Assembly (NCBI GenBank): GCA_017545095.1
Contig: JAFYCU010000059.1
Location: 1-10,764 of the forward strand
Direction of reading: 5' to 3'
Origin: Muribaculaceae bacterium
GTDB taxonomy: Bacteria; Bacteroidota; Bacteroidia; Bacteroidales; Muribaculaceae
Length of the DNA stretch: 10,764 nucleotides
Shown here: piece by piece, positions 1 through 10,402 of the stretch
Numbering within the stretch: position 1 is the first letter of the stretch
Layout of the letters: every line of letters starts with the position of its first letter
Notes under the pieces: model-generated
What the model saw: only the letters and a program-made list of their open reading frames with translations
The model's database searches: none
What the model was told of the DNA's origin: nothing
Program-made: the position numbers and the translations under genes

Positions 1-911
1 ACCATGTCGCAGTTGAACATCTTCGGGTCGGTGTCGAAGCATTCATCGGCAAAGCAGTAGTTGTCGTACCAGGGCCGCATCTGCGCGAGCAGGTCCTCCT
101 CCACGCCTCCGTTGCCGTCGTCCTCGATCATGCCCACGCTCTGGTAATAACGGATCATCTGGCGCACATCCTCCTCGCTGAAGCCGAGCATCATGTTGTA
201 GCGTTCCTCGAGGGTGATGTTGATGGAGATGTTGAAGCCGCTGGTGAGGTCGTCCATCGTCACGGGACTCACGCCGAGCATGAGTATGCGGTCGAAGTTG
301 GGCTTGTAGAGCTTGAACTCGTCGCGGTAGAACCCCTCGGCGTGTGTCATGGCGCGGTACACCTTCTCGCCATGCTCGCTGAGCACGGTGTTGGTGAAGT
401 TGTCGTATTCGTCGATGATCAGGTACAGGTGGTGACCCAGGGTTTTCGCCTCGGTGCAGATGATGGTGATTTTATCGGCCGAACGTTTTGATGCCAGCAC
501 CTCGGGCAGCCACCAGTCGGGATAAAGGTGCGCATATTGGCGTGCAAAAGCGTCGAGCCGTCGGCAGCAATACTCGTTGAAGTTCTTGGGCAGGTCATCC
601 ACACCGCCCTGCACCTGCGAGAAGTCGAAGTGCAACATCTGGAACGAATGGTGCAGCTTGGTGGGGTGGTCGTGAATCCACAAGCCGCCGAAGAGCTCGT
701 CCCACTGGTCGGCCTCCATCAGGTCGTAGTAGGCCTTGAGCATGCTCAGGAAGATGCTCTTGCCGAACCGTCTGGGGCGCGTGAGCAGCAGGAAGTTGCC
801 CGACACCTCAAGCTGAGGCAGATACTGGGTTTTGTCGACAAAATATTTGCCTTCGTGTCGCACCTGCTTGAAGTCGCAGATGCCGTAGGGGATGAGTTTC
901 ACGTTGTCCAT
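1..911 (-). CDS. AAA-ATPase-like protein with expected C-terminal PD-(D/E)XK nuclease domain (3' end cut by window)
   Basis: The frame is open from ATG at 911 to the window edge, giving 303 complete codons, so the C-terminal part is missing. The start (MDNVKLIPYGICDF) followed by 'FVDKTQYLP' is the usual opening of the AAA-ATPase-like family (Pfam PF09820). A Walker-A-type loop RPRRFGKS lies at residues 45-52. Walker B (LYLIIDEYDN, D167/E168) follows, then the conserved 'ILMLGVSPVTMDD..SGFNISINIT' block around 209-232 and 'WYDNY' at 281-285. Family members normally run to just over 500 residues and end in a PD-(D/E)XK nuclease-like domain (PF08011), which would lie beyond base 1. Biological role is unproven; these genes are often present in many paralogous copies in gut Bacteroidales. 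It differs in family from the ATPase at 5393-6820. Family assignment is strong, function is not. Confidence 0.9.
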   Translation of the reverse strand, partial: MDNVKLIPYGICDFKQVRHEGKYFVDKTQYLPQLEVSGNFLLLTRPRRFGKSIFLSMLKAYYDLMEADQWDELFGGLWIHDHPTKLHHSFQMLHFDFSQVQGGVDDLPKNFNEYCCRRLDAFARQYAHLYPDWWLPEVLASKRSADKITIICTEAKTLGHHLYLIIDEYDNFTNTVLSEHGEKVYRAMTHAEGFYRDEFKLYKPNFDRILMLGVSPVTMDDLTSGFNISINITLEERYNMMLGFSEEDVRQMIRYYQSVGMIEDDGNGGVEEDLLAQMRPWYDNYCFADECFDTDPKMFNCDM

Positions 912-1216: not shown

Positions 1217-3004
1217 TTAGCCAAGTATCATGTTGATGACATTGTTTAGGTCGTCAACATCCACATTACCGTTGTCGTCAGTATCGGCTCCGGGATAATC
1301 CTGGAGGGATTTCTTCTGAAGTATGATGTTGATGATGATGTTCACATCGTCAATATCAATGATGTGGTTCCCATCGGCATCACCAGGAGTCGAAGGATGA
1401 ACGTAGCCCGCTTGTGAGAAGAGGTAGTCGATATAAGCACCTTTGAAGGCAAAACGCACTTGTGCTTCATGCACTTCGGTGCTGTTCCTCGGGTCGGCAG
1501 TGACATGGGCCGTGACGGTGCCTGTCCAATCACCATTCTCGTCCATATCGTCGGTGAGCGTGATGTGCAGCCATTCAGGTAAAGAACCACCTTTACTCAT
1601 TGTCACCGTCCATTCTGCCGAGGGTTGCGCTGTGTAGAAGCTGATTCCTTCGAAGGTCTGCCCACCCATAGTGCGCGTCATAGAGCCGCCCTCGGCAGGG
1701 AACGTATATTCACCTTTTTCAGTCGGGATATTGAAAACGAGGAACGGCCGGCTCACGTCGAGCAGAATCGATGCTCCAACCTTGAGGGGCATGTTCCCAT
1801 CCTGATTAGCGAAAAAGTTGTTCAAACCATACAGTTCAATATAGCCATCGGCCTGCCGACCGATATAGGTGAGTTCTCCCACGCCTTCGTCTTCAGCATC
1901 GGTGGTAATCAGTCCTGTGATGCTCTGAATGGCAGCTTGATCCATGCCAGTGACAACCACGATGATAGCGTCATTGATTTCGGGCTGCCACTCACGTTCC
2001 ACACCCGTTGCCTCATCGGTCTCATAAAGGGTGAACTCCAGAATACCATCTCCATCCTCAGCCATCTCGGGGGTGATGGTGGTTCGTCCGCTAGCTATCA
2101 GATTGTTGTCGGTGAGGTTATAAGCATTGATGAACACTGGCTCAGTGTCGCTGTACTGCGGCAGCTCTTTATGCAGGTCATCGCGCATGTAGCGGTAGAT
2201 TTTCACACCGAGGTCAACGTTTTCGGCGACAACAAGATTGGCGCAGAAGAGATACACCTTGTTGAGCACGTAGGGCGACACGGGGGCATCAAAGCCAGCT
2301 CCGAACACGTTATACCCACTATAATTTTTCCCGAACCAGTAGCCGCTTTTATCACCCTCGCCATCGGAACCCATTGCACCGGTGTAATAAATCCAGCCGT
2401 AGCTCTGCTTCCCAAAGCGGTCGCTGTTGCCATAGTAATGGGCCGAGGCGAGGAAGTTGCTCGAAGCCCCGGTGTAAACCTCTCGCGAATCAACAACGGC
2501 AGCCACGCTTGCCGGGTTGTTGTCGATGCCCAATGCATAGGGGGGATAGTCGCCCACCGTGAGTGTGGGCACCTGCACGCATTCGTAGCCGTATTTGACA
2601 GAAAGGTCATTATCGCTGCTTTCAAACGTTTCTTCTTGCCCTGTCTCGGGGTCAACAAGCGTGTAGCTCCAATGCGAAGTGCCTTGCGCGGTGGACATAT
2701 TGCGCCACGTCACAGCATCGTAAGGTTTGGTGTGAATGAATGGCATCATGTAGCCACTGCCGTTTTTCAGCCATGCGGCATACATCGTGCCTTTCGGCCG
2801 CAGATAGTAAGCGGAGTTGGCCGGCACCTGCTTGCGGGGCGAGGTGGCAGCACATTGCCCATCGTGCCGCTGTGCAGTGCGATGCTCAATCTTGGCATTC
2901 ACCACCTGCACGGCGGGTGCAACCTGATTGTGCCGAGGTTGAGCAGCATCAACAGCCAGCCACAGCGTCAAGGCTAAAACAATAAATGGAATCTTCTTTT
3001 TCAT
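1217..3004 (-). CDS. Secreted protein with BACON-like domain and C-terminal dockerin-like calcium-loop pair
   Basis: This is a 595-residue protein. It starts MKKKIPFIVLALTLWLAVDAAQ, a clear signal peptide with a probable cut near residue 20. The region from about 60 to 420 is unrecognised, rich in Gly, Tyr and Asn, and looks like an extracellular beta-rich fold. Residues about 430-534 resemble a BACON or Ig-like domain ('FPAEGGSMT...AEWTVTMS...WLHITLT...FSQAGYV'). Two dockerin-type loops close the protein: D542/D544/N546/D550/D553 and D574/D576/N578/N580/D582/D585, each followed by a hydrophobic helix (NIIINIIL, NNVINMIL). Dockerins bind cohesins in Firmicutes cellulosomes; in Bacteroidales such tails are common but their partner is unclear. 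No catalytic motif was recognised. It has its own promoter and probably its own terminator, so it looks monocistronic. Domain calls are from pattern, not search. Confidence 0.85.
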   Translation of the reverse strand: MKKKIPFIVLALTLWLAVDAAQPRHNQVAPAVQVVNAKIEHRTAQRHDGQCAATSPRKQVPANSAYYLRPKGTMYAAWLKNGSGYMMPFIHTKPYDAVTWRNMSTAQGTSHWSYTLVDPETGQEETFESSDNDLSVKYGYECVQVPTLTVGDYPPYALGIDNNPASVAAVVDSREVYTGASSNFLASAHYYGNSDRFGKQSYGWIYYTGAMGSDGEGDKSGYWFGKNYSGYNVFGAGFDAPVSPYVLNKVYLFCANLVVAENVDLGVKIYRYMRDDLHKELPQYSDTEPVFINAYNLTDNNLIASGRTTITPEMAEDGDGILEFTLYETDEATGVEREWQPEINDAIIVVVTGMDQAAIQSITGLITTDAEDEGVGELTYIGRQADGYIELYGLNNFFANQDGNMPLKVGASILLDVSRPFLVFNIPTEKGEYTFPAEGGSMTRTMGGQTFEGISFYTAQPSAEWTVTMSKGGSLPEWLHITLTDDMDENGDWTGTVTAHVTADPRNSTEVHEAQVRFAFKGAYIDYLFSQAGYVHPSTPGDADGNHIIDIDDVNIIINIILQKKSLQDYPGADTDDNGNVDVDDLNNVINMILG

Positions 3005-5290: not shown

Positions 5291-5397
5291 CCAAGGATAG
5301 GTGCGCCAACTCGGTGTTTTTTTTGCTCGATTTGGCGCGATAATCGGCGATAGGTGCGCCAACTCGATGAATTTTTGCTCGATTTGGCGCACCTATC
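5291..5397. repeat. Copy A of a 106/107-base direct repeat flanking the ATPase gene (hairpin-bearing)
   Basis: This copy matches 6908-7013 base for base except for one extra T in a T-run (8 here, 7 there). Inside are two tandem units that start at 5296 and 5349 with the same 18 bases (gataggtgcgccaactcg) and share the end gctcgatttggcgc. The second unit has perfect 14-bp inverted arms, GATAGGTGCGCCAA (5349-5362) and its complement (5384-5397), around a 21-base loop. In the first unit only the inner 7 bases of the right arm pair. It overlaps the last codon and the TAG stop (5393-5395) of the ATPase gene, so it would fold at the very 3' end of that message. Confidence 0.95.
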
Positions 5398-6820
5398 GTT
5401 TGATTGTTGCGAACAGATCGTTGAGCGTTACTTGATTCGTAATATTGCTTGCATAAGCATTGGCTTTGAGTCCTTGCGTGGTCACCATCACTACTTGCAC
5501 GCTCGCTTTAAAGCCCGTTTCGGTCAGGAAATTCATCATGCGTGTGTTCAGCAGGCGGTCGTCGGCAGCCGTCATCACATATTCGCCCCTGCTGAATTTC
5601 ATCTCGCACAAATAGGCGACTTGCTTGGGACATTCAATCACCAAGTCGATTTGCGTTCGTGGCTCGGTGTCGTGGCTTCGCCAGGCATAGTACTCGGTGT
5701 GCAGTCGGGCTATGCCGAGAGCCTGCTTAATGGCATCGACATGGGTCATGCTCACGCGTTCAAACGACAAGCCCAACCAAGTGTTGAGTCGCGGTGTGTT
5801 GTGCTGTGAGCTCCAATAGTGGGCATCGGTGGTGCGATTGGCGCAGAACGAGAAGTGGAACTGTGTAAAAGCATCGGTGATTTGGTAAATGAGCTGGTTG
5901 GCCTTGATTTTTTTCTCGCGTGTGTGGTAGCTGCGGATGAAATCGCAATTCTCCAAATTCGACAGCAGCTGCGTCAGGTAGCCGCCCGTGTTGATGCCCA
6001 ATGCTTGTTTCAGCTCCTCGCGTGTGAGACCTTTGCGGCTCTTGGCCAGCAGCTCAATGATGCGCACATAGTTGTCGGGCGACTTGAACAGCGATTTAAA
6101 CAACCGTTCGAACTCGCGTCCAAGTAGCGCATCGGAGCCAAAAAACAAGCGGTCGATATTTTGTGCCACCGCATAGCGGCGGTCAAGCAGGCTCAGATAA
6201 TAGGGTACTCCACCTGTGGCTGAATACATTTCCAAGATGGCCATGCGGTTCCATCGAAATCCGTTGGCCTTTAGGTAGTCTTCCGCTTCGCTCAGAGTGA
6301 AGGGTTTGATGTGAAGTTCACGTGTGATTCGGTTGTGTAGACCTCCGTGGCTGTCGATGATGTTTTTCAGCATCCAAGAAGTGGCAGAGCCACACACAAT
6401 GAGTTTGACATGATGCTGATGTGCCGCCCAACCATTCCAAAACTGGTCGAGAGCGCGGATGAAACCCGCTTTCGGCGTGTCGAGACATGGCAGTTCATCG
6501 ATGAAAAGAATAATCTTGGTTTTGTTCTTCCTGCTGCGAAGAAAATCCTCCAGTAGTGTAAATGCCTCTATCCAAGTATTGGCCGAGGGAGCCTCGACAC
6601 CTGTCATGCGGCGCAAGGCCTGAGCGAACTTGAATAGTTGCTCTTGCTTGCTGCCGCCTATCACGCCAGTCATGTCGAAAGTGAGATGCTTGCCAAGCAA
6701 CTCCTGCACCAAAAAAGTCTTTCCCACACGGTGTCTGCCGTAAATGGCAATAAACTCCGATTTGGCAGATGCGATGCAGTCTTTTAAAACCCTCGATTCT
6801 TCTTCACGTCCTATCAGCAT
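5393..6820 (-). CDS. Archaeal-type ATPase with winged helix and C-terminal PD-(D/E)XK (DUF234-type) domain
   Basis: This 475-residue protein is complete. The start MLIGREEESRVL is the standard opening of the ATPase_2 family (PF01637). Walker A is GRHRVGKT (28-35) and Walker B ILFIDEL (104-110, D108/E109). A sensor-1-like stretch LIVCGSATSWM (140-150) and the conserved RITRELHIKPF (164-174) follow. Residues about 249-300 look like a winged helix-turn-helix. The C-terminal part has F353-E..V...QALGI and the nuclease-type triad D392 (QIDLVIE), E406 and K408 (CEMKFS), as in DUF234 (PF03008) of the PD-(D/E)XK superfamily. All catalytic residues look intact. The cellular role is unknown; mobility, defence or DNA maintenance are inferences. 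It has its own promoter and is enclosed by two near-identical direct repeats; the stop codon lies inside copy A. Confidence 0.93.
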   Translation of the reverse strand: MLIGREEESRVLKDCIASAKSEFIAIYGRHRVGKTFLVQELLGKHLTFDMTGVIGGSKQEQLFKFAQALRRMTGVEAPSANTWIEAFTLLEDFLRSRKNKTKIILFIDELPCLDTPKAGFIRALDQFWNGWAAHQHHVKLIVCGSATSWMLKNIIDSHGGLHNRITRELHIKPFTLSEAEDYLKANGFRWNRMAILEMYSATGGVPYYLSLLDRRYAVAQNIDRLFFGSDALLGREFERLFKSLFKSPDNYVRIIELLAKSRKGLTREELKQALGINTGGYLTQLLSNLENCDFIRSYHTREKKIKANQLIYQITDAFTQFHFSFCANRTTDAHYWSSQHNTPRLNTWLGLSFERVSMTHVDAIKQALGIARLHTEYYAWRSHDTEPRTQIDLVIECPKQVAYLCEMKFSRGEYVMTAADDRLLNTRMMNFLTETGFKASVQVVMVTTQGLKANAYASNITNQVTLNDLFATIKR

Positions 6821-6880
6821 AGCTACTAATTATTATTGGTTGTATTCGGCATTGCATTTGGGTGAGCGTTTTTTCGGGCG

Positions 6881-6911
6881 CAAATTTAGAAACAATTTTC
6901 GAAATCACCAA
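6881..6911 (-). promoter_or_regulatory. Promoter of the repeat-flanked ATPase gene
   Basis: On the minus strand TTGG (6908-6911), 19 bases, then a full-match -7 box TAAATTTG (6881-6888). The TTGG is the outermost four bases of repeat copy B, so part of the promoter is contributed by the repeat. The leader to the ATG at 6820 is about 55-60 bases and has no Shine-Dalgarno site. Confidence 0.7.
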
Positions 6912-7013
6912 GGATAGGTGCGCCAACTCGGTGTTTTTTTGCTCGATTTGGCGCGATAATCGGCGATAGGTGCGCCAACTCGATGAATTTTTGCTCGATT
7001 TGGCGCACCTATC
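6908..7013. repeat. Copy B of the 106/107-base direct repeat flanking the ATPase gene
   Basis: Same orientation and sequence as copy A, with a single T fewer in the homopolymer. Tandem units start at 6913 and 6965. The perfect 14-bp arms are at 6965-6978 and 7000-7013. It begins 62 bases behind the thyA stop, so like copy A it sits downstream of a minus-strand gene, and its far edge feeds the ATPase promoter. The sequences just outside the two copies are unrelated, which fixes the repeat borders. Confidence 0.95.
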
Positions 7014-10343: not shown

Positions 10344-10402
10344 GAAGGTGTATCAAAAGTGATTATCACGCGTAGCGTGCAAAACGCTTTTGATACACCT
10401 TC
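10344..10402. repeat. Nested palindrome: 16-bp inverted repeat enclosing a 5-bp hairpin
   Basis: GAAGGTGTATCAAAAG (10344-10359) and its exact complement (10387-10402) flank 27 bases. Inside these, CACGC (10367-10371) and GCGTG (10375-10379) form a second stem with a three-base loop. It lies between the right-edge gene and the guaA promoter and contains that gene's in-frame stop. It may be a strong terminator-like structure in RNA or a palindromic mobile element; no T-run follows. Confidence 0.8.

What the first reader, a model, noticed from the sequence alone, without database searches (positions are those of the whole stretch)
5291..7013. An ATPase/PD-(D/E)XK gene enclosed by near-identical 106/107-base direct repeats: a candidate undescribed gene cassette or mobile unit
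Seen: copies A (5291-5397) and B (6908-7013) differ by one T in a homopolymer and lie in direct orientation exactly around one gene. Copy A supplies the last codon and the stop; copy B supplies the TTGG half of the promoter. Outside the copies the flanks are unrelated. Known: archaeal-type ATPases with DUF234 and other ATPase/nuclease fusions are present in many copies in Bacteroidales, with no settled role. Inference: gene plus one repeat (about 1,617 bases) behaves as a unit that can be gained or lost by recombination between repeats, or moved by its own ATPase/nuclease. There is no transposase, integrase or obvious target duplication, so the mechanism would be new.
Basis: partly seen in the sequence, partly recalled or inferred. 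Interest (0 to 1): 0.85.

Follow-up and report, generated by a model that had tools for sequence, protein, structure and literature searches.

The report
Defence-candidate gene with private DNA palindromes
The two repeats around this bacterial ATPase-nuclease gene are paired DNA palindromes of a kind found, with a different sequence for each gene, beside many relatives of this candidate virus-defence gene; they are probably the gene's own control switch, and here a second copy also closes its far end.

Summary
The repeats are real: 107 and 106 bases, one T apart, in direct orientation around one gene. Each copy is two tandem ~50-nt palindromes, 52-53 bp apart. The gene encodes an AAA+ ATPase, winged helix and PD-(D/E)XK nuclease: PADLOC PDC-S27, an untested single-gene defence candidate.

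Palindromes beside the start are common in the nearer part of this family, but each gene has its own sequence: hairpin score 12 or more in 12 of 18 loci against 10 of 169 control starts. One unnamed 1.5 Mb genome has 14 paralogues; 9 of 14 carry tandem repeats with a period near 54 bp or twice that (1 of 319 controls), and no palindrome was found away from its own gene in the 1.19 Mb examined. In seven loci the palindrome keeps helical phase with the promoter (p 0.005). Best reading: a private operator array bound by the gene's own product.

Copies on both sides recur clearly in 3 of 33 loci, each abutting the stop codon, and a related element keeps two palindromes without their ATPases; gain or loss of gene plus palindrome is plausible, unproven. 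A repeat shared by paralogues is refuted where testable. The window's own genome is not held.

The parts
5393..6820 (-). ATPase gene, 475 aa: AAA+ (about 1-245), winged helix (248-314), PD-(D/E)XK nuclease (about 346-475; D392, E406, K408); PDC-S27
6908..7013 (-). Copy B (106 bp): two tandem palindromes upstream of the ATPase promoter
6965..7013 (.). Copy B, distal (long) palindrome, 19-nt arms
6913..6961 (.). Copy B, proximal (shorter, imperfect) palindrome; centre 48.5 bp before the TAnnTTTG box
6881..6911 (-). Probable ATPase promoter: TTGG (6908-6911), 19 nt, TAAATTTG (6881-6888)
   Evidence: sequence; consensus recalled
5291..5397 (-). Copy A (107 bp): same two palindromes; supplies the ATPase stop codon and lies upstream of the sulfatase gene
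5348..5398 (.). Copy A, long palindrome, 20-nt arms
   Evidence: I9

Best explanation
The 106-bp repeat is a double palindrome that serves as a private DNA binding site (operator array) of this PDC-S27 gene. Shown: each copy is two palindromes about 52 bp (five helical turns) apart; comparable but differently worded palindromes stand beside the start of many PDC-S27 genes, often in tandem at 52-56 bp, in phase with the promoter where this could be measured, and in the sequence examined they were not found away from their own gene. Inferred: the gene's own AAA+/winged-helix protein binds them as an oligomer and represses (or gates) its own promoter, so that a potentially toxic nuclease is kept low; each paralogue needs its own site so that paralogues do not silence one another. 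The downstream copy, at the stop codon, is inferred to be either a second operator (looping or a block to read-through) or the trace of gain or loss of [palindrome + gene] by recombination between copies.
For: Upstream hairpin score >=12 in 12 of 18 PDC-S27 loci against 10 of 169 intergenic control starts, Fisher p 3e-9. G405: score >=10 in 12 of 14 paralogues against 65 of 341 controls; tandem period 48-60 bp or double in 9 of 14 against 1 of 319, p 1.6e-13, a tenth by inspection (54 bp). Same spacing elsewhere: window 52-53, G351 53, WO phage and L093 56. Privacy: G351 whole genome (1.2 Mb) only the 2 sites at its ATPase, control 0; G405 no palindrome away from its gene found in 1.19 Mb; Segatella plasmid, 317 kb, one site. 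Orthologues at 65.7% identity in G351 and G406 keep the half-sites while the loops differ. Centre-to-box distances 38.5, 46.5, 47, 48.5, 58.5, 60, 68.5: R 0.83 at 10.5 bp, p 0.005, 10.5 the best of the periods scanned from 6 to 16. Palindrome likeness follows protein identity weakly (Mantel rho 0.36, p 0.0014). Model has a winged helix; Orc1/Cdc6 proteins bound to DNA are among the structural neighbours.
Against: No binding or expression was measured. The closest structures after two archaeal ATPases are STAND proteins (plant NLR, CED-4), where the winged helix need not touch DNA. Palindromes are weak or absent in some members (L051, L058, L059, L091, L093 score 8-9 and L096 11; the L057 score of 12 may be an ordinary terminator), and in 8 more distant PDC-S27 members only 2 reach 12 (L103, L104). 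With score >=9 all 14 G405 paralogues pass, but so do 100 of 341 controls. The phasing test has n=7 (6 without the weak L051: p 0.010). In one search pairs of 46% identity or more are not significantly more alike than the rest (p 0.08), and I delimited the 14 palindromes by hand. In G405 the overlap of half-sites with predicted promoter spacers is only modest (0.43 against 0.26 in 12 of 14). An RNA role is not excluded.
Confidence: 0.58

Rival explanations
1. Gene cassette or mobile unit: gene plus one repeat is gained and lost, by homologous recombination between palindromes or with help of its own nuclease.
For: Direct copies on both sides, abutting the stop, in the window, L052 and G405 C14. 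In contig IMGVR 2799112767_000002 (L091) palindromes A and B of contig G300 stand without the ATPases they accompany in G300; palindrome A lies in both contigs next to the same DUF3871-type gene (83% identical proteins; gene name recalled and from the annotation), while the ATPase beside it differs (40% identical). ATPase GC3 0.62 against 0.75-0.81 in its four nearest genes.
Against: Most members have the palindrome only upstream; no target duplication, transposase, circle or true empty allele seen; ORF 1217-3004 in the window has an equally low GC3 (0.61), so low GC3 is not special to the ATPase; palindromes A and B could instead belong to the host element. A scan of viral contigs with the DUF3871 protein gave only the same two contigs.
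Confidence: 0.2
2. Dispersed REP/REPIN-type repeats that happen to flank the gene.
For: Size, hairpin shape and tandem pairing resemble REP doublets (PMC3733652, passages).
Against: High copy number is lacking wherever a whole record or most of a genome could be searched; exact-pattern scans of viral contigs gave 0 stretches and of genome contigs 5 unrelated-looking stretches, none titled Bacteroidales. The window's own genome was not searchable.
Confidence: 0.05
3. The palindromes act as RNA: transcription terminators, insulators or a small antitoxin-like RNA.
For: They fold strongly on either strand; copy B follows thyA by 63 nt.
Against: No full-length terminator is called: only 5-pair partial stems on the + strand, in a region whose terminator count (4) is near the shuffle mean (2.2, sd 1.8); no Rfam match in window and six loci; in the Bacteroidota loci measured the palindrome lies upstream of the promoter, so outside that transcript; helical phasing and 5-turn spacing point to DNA.
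Confidence: 0.1
4. Origin- or iteron-like site: the Orc1/Cdc6-like protein opens or nicks its palindromes to copy or amplify the unit.
For: AAA+ plus winged helix next to tandem sites with A-rich centres; Orc/Cdc6 among structural neighbours.
Against: No replication gene or evidence of extra copies; fold likeness is generic to AAA+.
Confidence: 0.07

Closest known systems
PDC-S27 (PADLOC phage defence candidate; models PDLC04984/PDLC04985)
   Same: Window protein E 2.4e-178 over 2-470; ATPase fused to PD-(D/E)XK as described (PMC12988326, passages and section 20)
   Different: The passages I saw mention no palindromes or operator; no member there is experimentally validated
arCOG03166, AAA+ ATPase fused to HTH and RecB nuclease domains (Makarova et al. 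2014, PMC4158269, table row seen)
   Same: Same domain order; noted there as likely involved in defence or some plasmid gene
   Different: Archaeal family; membership of the window protein not tested; cis-sites not mentioned in the passages seen
REP / REPIN elements with RAYT (PMC3733652 passages; PMC3116915 and PMC2817692 search listing only)
   Same: Short palindromes, sometimes paired, next to a gene for a DNA-processing enzyme
   Different: Not multicopy in the sequence examined; no GTAG tag seen; nuclease is PD-(D/E)XK, not HUH
Iteron/initiator and autorepressor-operator pairs (recalled)
   Same: Tandem sites with their own sequence class next to the gene of their binding protein
   Different: Protein is an AAA+ nuclease of a defence family; units are palindromes at about 54 bp, five turns

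Membership tests
PDC-S27 | Full-length match to the PADLOC model | tested here: met
   E 2.4e-178. Also 14 of 14 G405 paralogues and 17 of the 18 loci (the fragment L096 not run)
PDC-S27 | Intact ATPase and PD-(D/E)XK residues | tested here: met
   G33, K34, E109, D392, E406, K408 invariant in 20 aligned members including 4 distant ones
PDC-S27 | Antiviral activity | not testable with these tools
   needs phage assays; none reported in the passages seen
REP/REPIN with RAYT | Many dispersed copies in the genome | tested here: inconclusive
   Not met in relatives; the window's genome is not held
REP/REPIN with RAYT | Tyrosine (HUH) transposase nearby | tested here: inconclusive
   Pfam scan of 6 window ORFs shows none; rest of the genome not held
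Insertion sequence / transposon | Transposase or integrase within the unit | tested here: not met
   Only the ATPase-nuclease lies between the copies
Insertion sequence / transposon | Target-site duplication | tested here: not met
   No shared bases directly outside the copies beyond the repeat
Autorepressor with private operator | Cognate site at the promoter, specific to the gene | tested here: met
   (association and position only)
Autorepressor with private operator | Protein binds the site and lowers its own expression | not testable with these tools
   bench test needed

The most novel reading that the evidence does not exclude
Genes of the PDC-S27 type are one-gene immune units that each carry a private DNA address: tandem palindromes about five helical turns apart, bound by the unit's own AAA+ nuclease, which both restrain the enzyme and mark the ends between which the unit is exchanged (leaving solitary palindromes behind). 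Private addresses act like compatibility groups and let as many as 14 paralogues live in one small genome.
Probability: 0.2. Interest if true: 0.82.

Novelty: new variant of a known kind. Interest (0 to 1): 0.62.

Why it matters
PDC-S27 is one of the commoner unvalidated defence candidates (4,562 bacterial and 3,503 archaeal systems reported in PMC12988326). A gene-specific site gives a direct handle: what the protein binds, how it is kept silent, and why a genome can hold 14 paralogues. It also offers a family with many natural protein-site pairs for studying specificity.

Tried and rejected
The genome-contig scan with the hairpin pattern gave 5 stretches, none titled Bacteroidales. A thyA search in what I took for Bacteroidota reached another phylum: 225 of 299 genomes matched, best 73% identity, and none of 20 neighbourhoods had the window's gene order; SusD was absent in 21 of 21. 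A protein search with the ORF that reads through copy B found nothing. Single-protein viral scan: none. REP reading, terminator reading and type III antitoxin-like RNA were considered and put low. Rfam 0 matches; NCBIfam and PHROGs 0; no PDB chain by sequence.

Dropped before counts: L049 (same sequence region as L048), L094 and L095 (same WO gene as L059) were left out of the 18 loci; L097-L104 (21-25% identity for the four aligned) were kept apart as distant members and did worse (2 of 8 at score >=12). An earlier 14-locus version with a 160-nt upstream window gave 7 of 14 against 3 of 51; I widened it to 220 nt after seeing that the window's own long palindrome lies 145 nt upstream, so one search is not free of tuning; the G405 paralogues were found afterwards, but one search uses lower score cut-offs and the period window was set after I had read the arrays. 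Phasing used the 7 of 8 chosen loci that have a TAnnTTTG box (L056 has none; other loci not tried). One search tested 33 of 35 loci (L096 and C14_8 are cut off) and listed the window, L052 and L091; it missed C14_8527 because the script took a wrong gene end, which searches put right. In L091 the match is only 17 nt inverted and 14 nt direct, so I count it as partial. In one search, 3 of 14 upstream regions had other matches: C11_1667 twelve, which by inspection are another repeat, C63 further copies in its own upstream stretch, C14_8527 its own downstream copy plus one 18-nt match. In one search the re-run for C11_1667 started from a wrong ATG; only its pattern search is used.

Nothing like these sites was seen in print in searches of the held library; most listed papers were seen as listings only, and subscription papers and preprints are not held. 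The original PDC paper was not read.

Full report
Observation. The two repeats are present as described: 5291-5397 and 6908-7013, 99.07% identical over 107 columns with one T of difference. Each copy consists of two tandem palindromes with 53 (copy A) and 52 (copy B) bp between starts. The order on the minus strand is guaA, flavin reductase, thyA, copy B, ATPase, copy A, sulfatase, ORF595.

Relatives carry palindromes too. I collected 18 independent PDC-S27 loci besides duplicates: the window, 5 plasmid or phage-collection records of Bacteroidota and others, Wolbachia phage WO, IMG/VR contigs and one genome. The best hairpin in the 220 nt upstream scores 12 or more in 12 of 18, against 10 of 169 intergenic control starts from the same sequences (Fisher 3e-9). 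Sequences differ from locus to locus: for example CGATAGTGGTGCCAAAAGT in Segatella, TATAATCTGCCAAAATCAAC in L054, and TTTTGGCGGAATATA in Butyrivibrio, nearly shared with Emticicia. Several protein relatives (P0008 clearly, P0021, P0097 and P0115 suggestively) have N-terminal read-through residues that look like a translated palindrome of the window's type (my inspection).

A genome with 14 paralogues. In the order of G351, 3 of 6 genomes hold the family; G405 holds 14 copies, one cut by a contig end, all 14 PDC-S27 by PADLOC. Pairwise identities run from 25 to 71% among the 13 long ones. Each has an upstream hairpin of score 9 or more (controls 100 of 341); 12 of 14 reach 10 (controls 65 of 341). 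The stronger sign is tandem repetition: 9 of 14 with period 48-60 bp or double, in fact 52-56 or 108-110, against 1 of 319 controls (p 1.6e-13); C11_1667 adds a pair at 54 bp by inspection. In 11 of 14 nothing else in 1.19 Mb matches the upstream region; the other three are explained under Tried and rejected. In G351 the pattern occurs twice in the whole 1.2 Mb genome, both upstream of its single ATPase, control 0. The G406 orthologue (65.7% identity) keeps the half-sites TTAGCCAA/TTGGCTGA while loops and flanks differ.

Position. In seven Bacteroidota loci the palindrome centre lies 38.5, 46.5, 47, 48.5, 58.5, 60 or 68.5 bp before the TAnnTTTG box; the lengths differ but the helical face is kept (R 0.83 at 10.5 bp, p 0.005 against uniform distances; without the weak L051 p 0.010). 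With spacings of about five turns, this is what a protein bound to one face of DNA near RNA polymerase would give. In G405 half-sites often overlap predicted -35/-10 spacers, but only modestly above background.

Two-sided copies and solitary palindromes. The window, L052 and G405 C14_8527 have the palindrome again right at the stop codon, in the same orientation; L091 shows a partial case. So 3 clear of 33 loci tested. Contigs G300 and L091 are relatives; the palindrome A next to a DUF3871-type gene and palindrome B are both kept in L091 (97.8% over 46 bp for B), but the ATPases that go with them in G300 are absent and a third ATPase stands between them. Both patterns occurred in 2 contigs only of viral contigs. 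This fits turnover of ATPases at palindromes, or palindromes that belong to the element; I cannot decide.

Verdict. What it is: most likely a private operator array of a PDC-S27 defence-candidate gene, duplicated to the far side here. What is shown is association, privacy in the sequence examined, spacing and position; binding, repression, defence and mobility are inferred. Distant members of the same PADLOC family mostly lack the feature (2 of 8 at score >=12), so it is a property of a part of the family.

Noticed in passing
window 10344-10402: Inverted repeat, 28-nt arms at 86% with a 3-nt loop, in an intergenic-looking stretch beyond guaA.
   Followed up: no
window 1217-3004 (-): 595-aa ORF without a Pfam match; its end looks like a dockerin-type repeat pair (recalled). 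GC3 0.61, as low as the ATPase, against 0.75-0.81 in the other four genes measured.
   Followed up: partly
L003 / G001 (CP051228.1): Titled Mesoflavibacter (Bacteroidota), but it and 20 genomes of its phylum group had no SusD match and its sampled DNA is 61% GC; the title looks wrong.
   Followed up: partly
L054 about 8464: The ATPase of this viral contig is interrupted by an in-frame stop.
   Followed up: no
G405 C11 about 23079, C76 about 6498 and upstream of C11:1667: A dispersed repeat (ctctaactacgctaaagcttcgtt...) unrelated to the palindromes.
   Followed up: no
W01 (NZ_CP137560.1) about 207221: The strongest hairpin of this plasmid, 36-nt arms with 4 mismatches, purpose unknown.
   Followed up: no
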